A stretch of 64,000 nt of DNA from assembly GCF_003576645.1 (NCBI RefSeq), contig NC_044917.1:11301896-11365895 (forward strand), given 5' to 3'. A program made the translations under genes and the position numbers. Source of the DNA: Ipomoea triloba. Its lineage: Eukaryota > Streptophyta > Magnoliopsida > Solanales > Convolvulaceae. Shown here piece after piece: positions 17,341 to 23,181 of this stretch. A model generated the notes under the pieces. That model searched no databases and was not told the origin of the DNA. It saw only the letters and a program-made list of their open reading frames with translations. How positions within the stretch are numbered: position 1 is the stretch's first letter; the number at the start of each line of letters is the position of its first letter.

Positions 17341-17797
17341 TGTTATGAAACAAAAGGAAAATAGTGGATGTCCAAGTTGTGGTTCGAACCTTGGAACATT
17401 CACTTAAAAACTAAAATCTAATCCACTTAGCTATCACGGCTGTTGGTGGTAGATTGCAGAACATTTAATAACTAAATGTTGTCTGGAAAGCTAGTTCAGG
17501 ATGGAGTAAAAAGCTATGGGTTAGGGGAATTGAACCCGTGACTTTAGGCTGGCAGCTAAGCTTTTAGGCGTTTGACAAATCCATCCAGACTAGGACAATT
17601 ATGTGCAATTACTGTAGATATATATATTTGTTTACTCCACTCCTGATAGTATAAATACCCCCTCCACTCTTTGAAAAGATTATCTCAGAAACATCAATGA
17701 AAGTGCTTCTTCCTTCTTCTAGTTTCGGTGTTTTCCATTTCAGTTTCTTCATTTCATATTATCACTATCATAGTTATTATTAATATTATTTACAACA
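17341..17797 (+). repeat. 5' LTR
   Basis: This 457 bp LTR matches 22,725-23,181. It contains a TATA box TATAAATA at about 17,650 followed by CCCCCTCCACTC, a likely RNA polymerase II start region. The segment just after it (CGTTATCGGCACGAG) is the likely primer-binding site. It is not the usual initiator-Met 3' end complement and looks complementary, with two mismatches, to a tRNA-Ile anticodon-arm sequence recalled from memory. Confidence 0.9.
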
Positions 17798-19131
17798 CGT
17801 TATCGGCACGAGTGCTCTACCCAAACCCACAACAATACCTTCCACCACTTTTCCGACGAGCCAAGAAAAAAAAATGAAAGCACCACTGCCAACGTTCTCC
17901 ATGGCTCGTCGTCCACCACCGTCGACGCCGTACTGTCCACGTTGCACACCGCACAGCCACCTGTCGCCGGCTACCTTGGTCACTCGCCGTCGCCTCCCAC
18001 TGCCGCCGGCGCCATCACCATTTCTGGTATATCTCTTTCTCTCTTCCTTCTCGGTTACGGACAAACAGGTGAAGTTGGAGATGAAAATCACGGCTCACGG
18101 GTATGCTTTTACTATTCTTATTATTATTATTAAAATGAAAGGAATAAAGCAAGTGGGGAACCTGGAGATTCTCTACAGTATGCTGTATGCATAATGAAAT
18201 TGCTGATCTTTCACTTTATTATTATTATTATTATTATTATTATATTATTTATTAATATAATACGTATATCAGCCATGTGCTCATACATCACATTATAATT
18301 GATTATTAATGATGTTTGGAATTAGGCCATTCGTGACTAATCCTGTTAACATCAAACTTGATTGTGTCTCCTGGAAGCTAATCCGATTGACAGATTCAAA
18401 ATTCGCAACTGGTTAAATACATTAATTATGGAGCACGACTGAAAATGATTAGGGAGAATTATATCGGAGATTTTGACCATACTTCGATGAGGTTTGCTTC
18501 CTTCATATTTTAAATATGATATAATATTATCAATGCCATATATATGACAATTATGTGCAAATGATTATTCATTGCACTAGTGAAATATTATTAGGAATTG
18601 ATCATATTTCCTAGAATTATTATTATGGCATGTTTTAGACAAGAATATAGTCCATATATTTGTTTGATGATTAAATTTTGAGAGCATAATTGAATATTGT
18701 CACACTTTTTAGATCACCATTTCATATATTATATAATGATGTATATATATGAATATTATGTGACAATTGTTTTTGTCTCAATTTGCTCCATTATGGTTTA
18801 TAAATATATGCCATATGATTTATCCCATTTGCTATAAATGTTTTGATATGCTTATCAAAATTATGGGATTAATATGTATGCGTATTAGGTATATGCTATC
18901 CATAAATATCATATATTGAAAATGGATGTGAACTATGATATTTAATGTGATGCCTAAATTTTAAAGGCTATATACTATGATATTTAATGTGATGCCTAAA
19001 TTTTAAAGGCTATATATATGCTTGAAAGAAGCATATTAAATGATCAAGTTGATGAGGAAGTTTAAGATGAACAATAAGTCATAATGTTTTTAATTGTCAG
19101 TAGTATTGATGAACAATAAGTCATAATGTTT
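17798..19131 (+). other. Leader/internal region of the LTR element, no gag found
   Basis: The GC-richer start (17,800-18,160) resembles a retroelement leader with short open frames but no gag motif. It is followed by an (ATT)n microsatellite at about 18,205-18,245 and AT-rich DNA. Two tandem duplications lie next to the RWP-RK gene: TGATATTTAATGTGATGCCT near 18,936-19,015, and AACAATAAGTCATAATGTTT at about 19,058-19,148. Confidence 0.5.
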
Positions 19132-20098
19132 TTAATTGTCAGTAGTATTATTGGGAGGAGGAACATCTTCATCTAACAAAGCAAGTACTTCCTGTATGTC
19201 CTCCGGTGCTAATTCAGGAATATCAGGAAATATAGGAGCTTGTGATGAACTCTCAGGAATAGTAGAAGGAATAGTAGGAGCTTGTGATGAACTCTCAGGA
19301 ATAGTAGAAGGAATAGTTGTCGGATCTATATACCTTCTCTTTTTAGAACTATTCCTGTCACATTTGTCTCTGAGTCTTGTTGTTGCCTCAGCCAATTCTA
19401 TGTTTGGATTCTGTAGAATCGCTTTCTTCTCATCTTCTAACCCCTTTATTACCCTTTGCAGTTCAGCTTGATCTTTGATTTCACCGAATTCCTACACCAC
19501 AAATTGTGTTAAACCTACTTCAAAATATCAAGTTGAAAGAAAATTAGAAATTACCTGGACATTTGCTAATAGCCTGTCCAAACTCACAAGTTTCCGATAA
19601 GGCCAGTAGGCAATCCCTACTTCCCTACATTTTTTCTTGAAAGTTGCTCGCCCGACCTGCAATTCTTCTGCAGCTTGATCAGCGGTCAAATAGAAATATT
19701 TAGAAAACTTTTCAAAAGTTAGTGTGGTAGTATCACAAAAGGTTCTCCTAGTCCTCTTTCTCCCAATAAATACATTTGCATTTATATTTGCTACATCTAC
19801 CGCTGTAATGGTATTATCTTCCTCTACCACTACAGTATTGCTTTGGTCTGCAACCACAACATCTGTAACTGCAGTACCTGCATTAAAAGCTATAAGTTAA
19901 TATCACACTTATAGAATAAGAATTCTAGAAAATGGTTGAACCCTTACCAACTATCTCGTTCAATTCTGGTGGAGCATTCTCAAAATCTCCCACAGAAGTA
20001 TGATCTGTACTCTGTGCACTATCCCTTAACGGTGATAGGTGAATCTCATCCCAAAAGGAAGAATTATCCTGAGATGAGGAATTAGTAGTATTTGCCAT
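19132..20098 (-). CDS. RWP-RK (RKD-like) transcription factor, 3 exons, inside the LTR element
   Basis: Exons on the minus strand are 20098-19948, 19877-19555 and 19491-19132, with GT-AG borders (TTG|GTAAGG, ATGCAG|GT, CAG|GTAATT, GTGTAG|GA). They join in frame to 277 residues without stops. The RWP-RK DNA-binding domain covers about residues 101-158: LTFEKFSKYFYLTADQAAEE, then GRATFKKKCREVGIAYWPYR, then KLVSLDRLLANVQ. A basic GRKRTRR at 89-95 may be a nuclear signal. The motif reads YWPYRK where the family has RWPxRK, so the first Arg is Tyr. A predicted helix follows (residues 159-205), then a 14-residue unit TIPSTIPESSSQAP repeated twice and an acidic tail. RKD proteins are nuclear regulators of egg-cell and germline programmes. 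Whether this copy is expressed or functional is unknown. Confidence 0.85.
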
Positions 20099-20739
20099 TT
20101 GCAAAAAAGTACAAAAGAAGTAAACGAGTAATATGTCTAGAACGGTGAATGCTCAGAAGTGAATGTGAGCGATAGAATGTCAAAAGGGAAAAACGGATAA
20201 TGAATTTATAGCAATGAGCAATCGGTATTAGAATGCTAATACTGTTTGAACCGATTGAGTATTTCAAAGTCTGTTGTCTCGTGATTCCTGTGAAAAGATA
20301 ACAATTATCGCATTTTTCTGTTTACAACGATTGCGGTTTTCAAACATCTTTAGGGAATACTGATTTGTCAGGGCTAACATTGATTTGGGCTAAATATTGA
20401 TAAGTCAGACAGTAGTCTCCCTATTTGCATGATTATTTTATGTAGCATGCTTAAATGAAAATTTTCAAATTATATGGGAGTCTAATTTGATATACTACTG
20501 TTTATGAAATCTGACACACTGCATATCATGATTATTCCCCTATACACCTAGTACGTATGTGATAAACATTTCCCAAATCTGCGTTTATATTCTTAGTATG
20601 CAGTCTATTTTACTATATCACCTCCATAGCGTATCTCTAAGGGCTATTGAATAAAACTAGGTATATATATATATGACGATCATAGAACTCCGTCTGATTG
20701 TCTAAATACCTAGAGCCTATTATTAGGGATCAATAGATA

Positions 20740-22054: not shown

Positions 22055-22700
22055 GGTTATGGTTGCACTCTTTTTCCCTTAACTAAGTTTTTCCCATTGG
22101 GTTTTCTTAGCGTAAGGTTTTTAATGAGGCAACCGGTGCAACACATAATTTAACATATATCATGTACTCTTTTCCTCATTAGGTTTTTCCCACTGGGTTT
22201 TTCTAATGAGGTTTTTAACGAGGCATGAGTATAGTCTAGTAATCCTGAAGATTATACACTGAAAGTTTATGACTGGTTATCCCGAAGATTAGACCCTGAA
22301 GGTCATGAATGATTTATGGTTGTACTCTTTTTCCTTAGCTAAGTTTTTTCCCACTGGGTTTTCTTAGCCTAAGGTTTTTAATGAGGCAACCTTATATAAC
22401 ATATGTTTTTGAAATACATCATGTACTCTTTTTCCCTTGACTAGGTTTTTTCCTATAGGGTTTTTCCTAGCAATGTTTTTAATGAGGCATGTGTATGATA
22501 AGATGATGGCCAATGAAAATGCTGTTAATCAATATGGCATCATCTCAAAAATCTTTAGAAACAAGGAGGAGCATACGAACTTGATCTTCAATGATGACTT
22601 GATCAGGGGGAGCACATATTGTACTCTTTTTCCCTTATCCAAAATTTTTCCCCAATGGGTTTTTCTTTGGTAAGGTTTTTAACGAGGCAATATAGTGTTC
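22055..22700 (+). repeat. Array of five Copia 3' stem-loop repeats
   Basis: Five related units of about 65 bp start near 22,065, 22,165, 22,322, 22,420 and 22,622. Each reads roughly CTCTTTTTCCCTTAACTAAG, then TTTTTCCCACTGGGTTTT, then CTTAGC, and ends GGTTTTTAATGAGGCA. Each can fold into a stem-loop (CTAAG with CTTAG, CCCA with TGGG). Such arrays are common between pol and the 3' LTR of plant Copia elements. Confidence 0.8.
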
Positions 22701-22715
22701 ATCTTTTGGACATCC

Positions 22716-22724
22716 AAGGGGGAG
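22716..22724 (+). other. Polypurine tract
   Basis: The purine run AAGGGGGAG directly abuts the TG of the 3' LTR. This is the expected primer for plus-strand DNA synthesis. Confidence 0.85.
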
Positions 22725-23181
22725 TGTTATGAAACAAAAGGAAAATAGTGGATGTCCAAGTTGTGGTTCGAACCTTGGAACATTCACTTAAAAACTAAAA
22801 TCTAATCCACTTAGCTATCACGGCTGTTGGTGGTAGATTGCAGAACATTTAATAACTAAATGTTGTCTGGAAAGCTAGTTCAGGATGGAGTAAAAAGCTA
22901 TGGGTTAGGGGAATTGAACCCGTGACTTTAGGCTGGCAGCTAAGCTTTTAGGCGTTTGACAAATCCATCCAGACTAGGACAATTATGTGCAATTACTGTA
23001 GATATATATATTTGTTTACTCCACTCCTGATAGTATAAATACCCCCTCCACTCTTTGAAAAGATTATCTCAGAAACATCAATGAAAGTGCTTCTTCCTTC
23101 TTCTAGTTTCGGTGTTTTCCATTTCAGTTTCTTCATTTCATATTATCACTATCATAGTTATTATTAATATTATTTACAACA
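22725..23181 (+). repeat. 3' LTR
   Basis: This 457 bp LTR reads as identical to the 5' LTR at 17,341-17,797. It is followed directly by the second copy of the TTAAT target duplication at 23,182-23,186. Confidence 0.9.

What the first reader, a model, noticed from the sequence alone, without database searches (positions are those of the whole stretch)
17341..23181. A young Copia retrotransposon carrying an intact RWP-RK transcription-factor gene
The sequence shows two 457 bp LTRs that read as identical, a perfect TTAAT target duplication, a ruined pol and, between the LTRs, a three-exon RWP-RK gene with a clean 277-residue frame. RWP-RK/RKD genes are normally host regulators of egg-cell and nitrogen programmes. 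A non-autonomous element that preserves a host regulator while losing its own enzymes would be a vehicle for copying a germline regulator around the genome.
Basis: partly seen in the sequence, partly recalled or inferred. Interest (0 to 1): 0.88.

Follow-up and report, generated by a model that had tools for sequence, protein, structure and literature searches.

The report
Retrotransposon carrying an intact RWP-RK gene
A jumping gene with two identical ends, in what is likely a morning-glory-type plant genome, carries on its opposite strand an unbroken, predicted three-exon RWP-RK regulator gene with several close relatives in Ipomoea, so it is likely one of the vehicles that spread this regulator; whether the protein is made or does anything is untested.

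Summary
An LTR element fills 17341-23181: two 457-bp LTRs identical at every base, TG...CA ends, a perfect TTAAT duplication, and a purine tract before the 3' LTR. On its minus strand lies a predicted three-exon RWP-RK gene with an unbroken 277-aa frame, PF02042 at 61 bits and a TATA-like box. The enzymes are ruined; Copia is likely but unconfirmed by Pfam.

New here: the gene is multicopy and, as far as three word-limited searches reach, confined to Ipomoea: seven close I. triloba clusters (24 member sequences; five full-length) and partial copies in 14 I. batatas models. The nearest matches 260 of 263 residues. The gene is antisense to the element, which would explain how its introns survive an RNA intermediate.

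Not shown: that other copies sit in this element (the genome search did not complete, 12 tries), the donor gene, expression, germline function. Precedents: RWP-RK genes in intact LTR elements of grasses (PMC10011142), antisense ORFs in plant LTR elements (PMC7264820). Verdict: real; a new variant of a known kind; the vehicle claim is likely but untested.

The parts
17336..17340 (.). target-site duplication TTAAT, left
17341..17797 (+). 5' LTR, 457 bp, TG...CA, TATAAA at 17650
17798..18194 (+). G+C-rich leader (52% over 17798-18130) with most of a 136-aa stop-to-stop frame (17784-18194) without Pfam match; a primer-binding site would begin at 17798 (not verified)
19132..19491 (-). RWP-RK gene exon 3 (stop codon included)
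19492..19554 (-). intron 2, 63 nt, GT...AG
19555..19877 (-). RWP-RK gene exon 2, bears the RWP-RK domain (residues 103-150)
19878..19947 (-). intron 1, 70 nt, GT...AG
19948..20098 (-). RWP-RK gene exon 1, starts ATG
20203..20210 (-). TATA-like box (TATAAATT) beginning 112 nt before the ATG; candidate promoter of the gene
20714..20803 (+). short frame resembling the end of a Copia integrase (recalled motif; no Pfam hit)
21379..21986 (+). short broken frames resembling Copia reverse transcriptase (recalled motifs; no Pfam hit)
22022..22690 (+). degenerate 68-nt repeats (4 copies, 69-84% to the reference copy) between pol remnant and 3' LTR
22716..22724 (+). polypurine tract AAGGGGGAG
22725..23181 (+). 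3' LTR, 457 bp, identical to the 5' LTR
23182..23186 (.). target-site duplication TTAAT, right

Best explanation
A complete LTR retrotransposon with two identical LTRs and no long enzyme frame of its own carries, on its opposite strand, a predicted three-exon RWP-RK gene with an unbroken frame, and it likely inserted with that gene already inside, copied by the enzymes of a related element. The gene would be read from its own promoter (TATA-like box 112 nt upstream of the ATG), not from the LTR. Because it is antisense, its introns are not introns on the element's genomic RNA; they would therefore survive reverse transcription, and every new copy would bring a ready-to-splice gene. The element is likely one of the vehicles that spread the Ipomoea RKD1-like family. 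Shown: LTRs, target duplication, unbroken gene model, multicopy relatives in Ipomoea. Inferred: Copia class, host genus, help in trans, intron protection, role in the family's spread. Untested: expression, protein function.
For: LTRs 457/457 identical, and a perfect 5-bp duplication flanks the whole block. Zero differences bound the age below about 0.25 My at 1.3e-8, or 0.47 My at 7e-9 substitutions per site per year (rates assumed). RWP-RK domain 61 bits. Seven close I. triloba clusters with 24 member sequences (species of the members not listed); the representatives of five are full-length (263-291 aa), and the seven lie on five distinct contig lengths. I. batatas copies are intermixed with I. 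triloba copies: 7 label changes against a shuffled mean of 7.2 (22 rows, 20 different; most forks weakly supported). Coding signal: in substitution-only neutral simulations at the P0003 divergence 4.3% of 3000 runs stay stop-free and 0.33% reach the observed contrast of domain over linker; at the P0002 divergence 26% stay stop-free and 0 of 3000 reach it. No TIR pair (12 nt, at most 1 mismatch) with a TSD of 4-10 bp brackets the gene (0 of 22 pairs; shuffles averaged 21 pairs and 0.08 with TSD), and no exact direct repeat of 16 or more.
Against: No other copy could be examined as DNA: the genome search on the own assembly did not complete. tblastn of the 25 homologues against the window matched only the gene, never the LTR or the rest of the element, although protein models would rarely include it. 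No I. batatas model holds the full gene, and two of the seven close I. triloba representatives (P0006, P0007) are shortened. Tandem units in P0020 show that part of the spread is local duplication. The domain-over-linker contrast is small against the distant clusters: 22/48 versus 17/39 (P0008), 21/48 versus 16/39 (P0009), 22/48 versus 15/41 (P0021). The regions were set by me after seeing the alignment, conservation could predate the capture, and annotation favours intact copies. Only one of five AlphaFold2 models reached a mean pLDDT of 61; the other four had 40-42. Pfam does not confirm Copia.
Confidence: 0.6

Rival explanations
1. The RKD1-like family is an Ipomoea gene family amplified by other routes (tandem duplication, other transposons). 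This LTR element captured one member once and is an incidental carrier.
For: Triple unit in P0020. Other copies were not seen in an LTR context. A more distant branch (P0008, P0009, P0021; about 50% identity) also exists in I. triloba.
Against: Representatives are dispersed over five contig lengths. The nearest relative is 260/263 identical, which speaks for recent copying of this very version, unless it is the same locus in another plant.
Confidence: 0.25
2. The gene is the cargo of a DNA transposon or Helitron that landed inside an already inserted Copia element.
For: Nesting is common in plants; Tpn1 elements of Ipomoea capture genes (recalled). Intron retention fits DNA-level movement.
Against: No TIR with a 4-10 bp TSD and no exact direct repeat of 16 or more brackets the gene. 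It would have to have landed within the short time the LTRs have stayed identical. Helitron ends and TSDs of 2-3 bp were not tested.
Confidence: 0.12
3. Dead cargo: a captured gene without promoter activity or function, still open only because the insertion is young. (Compatible with the best explanation's transport step.)
For: Young insertion. The motif is YWPYRK rather than RWPxRK. No expression data were available here.
Against: Open frames persist across subfamilies that differ by about 23% in protein, with the domain better kept than the linker among the close clusters.
Confidence: 0.3
4. Assembly artefact: LTRs or gene placed by misjoining.
For: One N at 21983, a 469-N gap at 30367-30835, and three tandem duplications of the same 42-bp period near the gene's end.
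Against: TSD, TG/CA ends and PPT all sit exactly at the LTR borders. The gene model matches independently annotated I. triloba proteins.
Confidence: 0.04

Closest known systems
[quoted passage not shown] passages and section 8 seen)
   Same: RWP-RK genes overlap or lie within intact LTR elements, and family expansion is tied to LTR expansion.
   Different: Those are grasses. The text seen does not give orientation, introns or element class (supplements not read). Here the host is likely a eudicot (Ipomoea), the gene is antisense with introns kept, and the LTRs are identical.
Antisense additional ORFs of plant LTR elements: Grande gene23, RIRE2, Retand, PvRetro13 (PMC7264820 parts 1-2 of 3; PMC11963269 passages)
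   Same: Antisense gene inside an LTR element; for Grande its own promoter and a nuclear product are reported; DNA binding suspected.
   Different: There the ORF lies between pol and the 3' LTR and no clear host homologue is known; Retand is Gypsy (the others by recall). Here the gene lies upstream of the pol remnant, where gag would be, has introns, and belongs to a known plant regulator family.
Orchid Gypsy elements with a captured AlkB m6A demethylase (PMC9289625; abstract, section 12, passages)
   Same: A host-type domain amplified inside an LTR lineage in one genus; the same screen also lists a B3 transcription-factor domain in Aegilops elements.
   Different: That screen of 121 angiosperm genomes reports its 15 recurrent extra domains in Gypsy only, none in Copia, and its main text has no mention of RWP (supplements not read). 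It found elements by reverse transcriptase, so an element with a ruined pol would likely be missed.
LTR-captured genes of rice and sorghum (PMC3726574 passages) and Bs1 of maize (through PMC7264820)
   Same: Host genes inside LTR elements.
   Different: Transduced sequences are usually sense according to PMC7264820; here antisense. RWP does not occur in the main text of PMC3726574.
CitRKD1 of citrus with a MITE insertion (PMC6090715, search listing only)
   Same: Link between a transposable element and an RWP-RK (RKD) gene.
   Different: There, as I recall, the element sits in the promoter; here the gene sits in the element.

Membership tests
LTR retrotransposon | paired direct LTRs with TG...CA ends | tested here: met
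   457/457 identical, borders exact
LTR retrotransposon | target-site duplication of about 5 bp | tested here: met
   TTAAT on both sides
LTR retrotransposon | polypurine tract before the 3' LTR | tested here: met
   AAGGGGGAG 22716-22724
LTR retrotransposon | primer-binding site complementary to a tRNA | tested here: inconclusive
   sequence after the 5' LTR inspected and folded; not compared with any tRNA
Ty1/copia superfamily | integrase upstream of reverse transcriptase, Copia-type RT | tested here: inconclusive
   recalled motifs in the right order, but none of 10 pieces matched a retroelement Pfam family
Autonomous element | gag-pol coding capacity | tested here: not met
   longest sense stop-to-stop frame 136 aa
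RWP-RK protein family | PF02042 above the curated cut-off | tested here: met
   61.4 bits against 29.3
RWP-RK protein family | RWPxRK signature | tested here: not met
   reads YWPYRK, as in P0001-P0007; P0008 has YWPQRK, P0009 CWPQRK; the profile match stands nonetheless
RKD subfamily | short protein without NLP-type domains, clustering with RKDs in a tree | tested here: inconclusive
   277 aa and no other Pfam domain; relatives are named RKD1/2/4-like by NCBI; no canonical RKD was reached, so no tree with them
Antisense additional ORF of LTR elements | conserved antisense gene in most copies of the element | not tested

The most novel reading that the evidence does not exclude
An Ipomoea LTR element has turned a host egg-cell/embryo-type RWP-RK regulator into its own antisense accessory gene: each new copy delivers a self-promoted, intron-bearing transcription factor that acts back on the element or on germline genes. 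That would make it a selfish germline regulator that multiplies with its carrier.
Probability: 0.12. Interest if true: 0.9.

Novelty: new variant of a known kind. Interest (0 to 1): 0.55.

Why it matters
It gives a concrete, datable case of a whole plant transcription-factor gene, introns and candidate promoter included, inside a recently inserted LTR element. It suggests why antisense orientation is the form in which intron-bearing genes can be copied through RNA. It makes testable whether lineage-specific bursts of RWP-RK genes (grasses, and now perhaps Ipomoea) are caused by LTR elements. If expressed, these copies could matter for embryo or root programmes in sweet potato and its kin: one root transcriptome reports RKD expressed in I. 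batatas but not in I. trifida (PMC5234144, passages; no biological replicates; not linked to this family).

Tried and rejected
Nested DNA transposon around the gene: searched for TIRs with a 4-10 bp TSD and for bracketing direct repeats, none (one search showed the 25 longest of 117 inverted pairs). Helitron ends: only an unused stub in the script, so not tested. Other copies in viral contigs: none for the protein family (two peptide patterns, 19 stretches, none confirmed), an RT-like piece (40 stretches, none confirmed) or the first 34 bases of the LTR. Canonical RKDs outside Ipomoea: not reached by three protein searches, one of them confined to residues 100-215. One search was capped at 7997 candidates, and the tool needs shared 5-residue words, so absence elsewhere is not shown. 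The one non-Ipomoea hit, P0025 (unnamed JGI contig, E 6.2), has an RWP-RK domain of its own (51 bits) but is not a close relative. Solved structures by sequence: six matches at E 0.05-0.83, taken as chance; by fold: none at E 0.001 or better, so the fold search adds nothing. Rfam on 16000-25000: none at gathering score. A regulatory reading of the inverted repeat before the TATA-like box was not pursued.
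Full report
Observation. The element occupies 17341-23181. Its LTRs are identical over 457 bp, with the match ending exactly at the borders. A perfect TTAAT duplication flanks it, and a purine tract AAGGGGGAG precedes the 3' LTR. These marks sit where a reverse-transcribed insertion puts them, so a simple assembly duplication is unlikely. With no difference in 457 sites, the 95% upper bound of age is 0.25 My at 1.3e-8 and 0.47 My at 7e-9 substitutions per site per year; the rates are assumed.

The gene. On the minus strand, three exons (20098-19948, 19877-19555, 19491-19132) with GT...AG introns of 70 and 63 nt give a 277-aa protein. 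Pfam finds RWP-RK at residues 103-150, 61.4 bits. The signature reads YWPYRK rather than RWPxRK. A TATA-like box begins 112 nt before the ATG and ATTAAA signals follow the stop. The best AlphaFold2 model (10-row alignment) is confident over roughly residues 101-210, all helical, and not elsewhere; its mean pLDDT is 61, and the other four models reached only 40-42. A fold search gave nothing at E 0.001 or better. P0001-P0005, annotated independently in I. triloba, skip exactly intron 2 when aligned to the window.

The rest of the element. No sense frame exceeds 136 aa. Short frames at 20714-20803 and 21379-21986 resemble the end of a Copia integrase and a Copia reverse transcriptase, by motifs I recall. 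Ten pieces, chosen by eye from 90 listed frames and searched apart, gave no retroelement family in Pfam, only four weak unrelated matches below cut-off. I therefore call Copia likely, not shown. A set of 68-nt repeats fills much of the stretch before the 3' LTR. In the usual order (recalled), the gene sits where gag, protease and integrase would be expected.

Relatives. The first search found 19 proteins at E 0.001: 9 of I. triloba and 10 of I. batatas. A profile search found 25 at E 10: 10 I. triloba, 14 I. batatas and 1 unnamed JGI protein at E 6.2 (the best 7997 candidates only). A search with residues 100-215 alone found 13, all Ipomoea, among 389 candidates. Seven I. triloba clusters (P0001-P0007) are close and stand for 24 member sequences, whose species are not listed; five representatives are full-length (263-291 aa), P0006 and P0007 are shorter. 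Three clusters (P0008, P0009, P0021) are distant, about 50% identical. P0001 matches 260 of 263 residues and lacks a 14-residue repeat of the window copy. The genome is therefore likely an Ipomoea, but the species is not settled, and P0001 could even be the same locus in another plant. In I. batatas the 14 models cover only 8-47% of the protein. They hold exons 1-2, exon 2, or in P0024 exon 1 alone, often fused to unrelated models (ARF2-like P0013, shaggy kinase P0014, RABD2a P0015). In 12 of 14 (all but P0019 and P0024) the family sequence breaks off after the same ...E(L/M)Q, where the window has CAG|GT; P0020 does so in two of its three units. This fits copies lying in or near genes, but ab initio gene calling can produce such fusions. 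P0020 holds three units in a row, so local duplication is also at work.

Spread and selection. On the exon-2 stretch of 22 rows, the I. triloba and I. batatas copies are intermixed (7 changes of label, shuffled mean 7.2); most forks are weakly supported (11 of 17 inner branches drawn open). Between the window and P0003 the domain (41/48) and its C-flank (55/63) are better kept than the linker (37/60). Under substitution-only neutral simulation at that divergence, 4.3% of 3000 runs remain stop-free and 0.33% show such a contrast; at the P0002 divergence 26% remain stop-free and 0 of 3000 show the contrast. Against this: with the distant clusters the contrast is small (P0008 22/48 versus 17/39; P0009 21/48 versus 16/39; P0021 22/48 versus 15/41), I set the regions after seeing the alignment, and annotation favours intact copies. 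The data argue for past purifying selection on the protein among the close copies. They do not tell whether it acted inside the element.

Mechanism. The simplest account is one event: the element, gene included, was transcribed from its LTR, copied by the enzymes of a related element, and inserted here. Since the gene is antisense, its introns cannot be spliced from that RNA; this would explain why a gene that moved through RNA keeps them. Capture itself must then have happened at DNA level or from antisense read-through, not from the gene's mRNA (inference). A nested transposon is disfavoured: 22 TIR-like pairs bracket the gene against 21 in shuffles, none with a 4-10 bp TSD, and there is no bracketing direct repeat of 16 or more. 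Helitron ends were not tested.

What could not be done. The decisive test, other copies of the LTR in the same genome, was asked for 12 times and never answered. tblastn of the 25 proteins against the window matched only the gene, so nothing links the other copies to the element yet.

Known ground. [quoted passage not shown] Antisense extra ORFs are known in Grande, RIRE2, Retand and PvRetro13 (PMC7264820 parts 1-2 of 3; PMC11963269 passages). A screen of 121 angiosperm genomes found its recurrent extra domains in Gypsy only, among them a B3 transcription-factor domain, and its main text does not mention RWP (PMC9289625); it used the reverse transcriptase to find elements, so one with a ruined pol would likely escape. 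A 2026 review of gene capture in plants has no mention of RWP, Copia, intron or antisense in its main text (PMC13317346, term counts and passages). RWP-RK expansions elsewhere were put down to whole-genome duplication (elephant grass, PMC10472707, passages) or tandem duplication (Chrysanthemum, PMC10105424, passages). No title or abstract opening in the listings described this Ipomoea element; several lists were cut short (10 of 47, 15 of 64 and 15 of 45 shown), and the library holds open-licence papers only.

Verdict. It is an unbroken, intron-bearing, antisense RWP-RK gene in a recently inserted LTR element, of a family that is multicopy in Ipomoea. It is a new variant of a known kind; its role as the family's vehicle is likely but rests on copies not yet seen in their DNA setting.

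Noticed in passing
window 18932-19020, 19066-19149, 19229-19317: Three different tandem duplications, all of period 42 bp, within 390 bp at the 3' end of the gene; no other row of period 42 among the 26 for the window at score 80 (two rows have period 41, at 2514 and 16943). One adds 14 residues absent from P0001. Slippage, strand transfer or an assembly joint cannot be told apart.
   Followed up: partly
window 17381-17390 and 17525-17537: The LTR holds GGTTCGAACC and, reversed, GGGTTCAATTCCC, which look like Pol III B boxes or T-arms (weak tmRNA T-arm match, E 0.037, far below the gathering score); perhaps tRNA-derived SINE pieces inside the LTR.
   Followed up: partly
window 20257-20219: Inverted repeat CAATCGGT...ACCGATTG just upstream of the TATA-like box of the RWP-RK gene; possibly a regulator site.
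   Followed up: no
P0013, P0014, P0015, P0016, P0017, P0018, P0023 (I. batatas): Exon 2 of this gene, without exon 1, appears as a cassette in models of other genes, beginning at or next to the same acceptor and breaking off at the same internal point; either exonisation or gene-caller chimeras.
   Followed up: partly
P0020 (I. batatas): Three RWP-RK units in tandem in one gene model.
   Followed up: no
window 6784-6855 and 9698-9769, + strand: Two tRNA-Gly (gcc) predictions about 2.9 kb apart on either side of a weak reverse-transcriptase (RVT_1, 20 bits, below cut-off) fragment at 7831-8367, minus strand.
   Followed up: no
window 24239-24353 and 24380-24494: 115-nt inverted repeat, 82% complementary, 26-nt loop, about 1 kb right of the element; MITE-like.
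   Followed up: no
window 11370-12212, 27089-27523 and 52923-53633, all minus: Likely host genes around the element: AP2-domain protein, RNase III-like protein, DUF568 protein.
   Followed up: no
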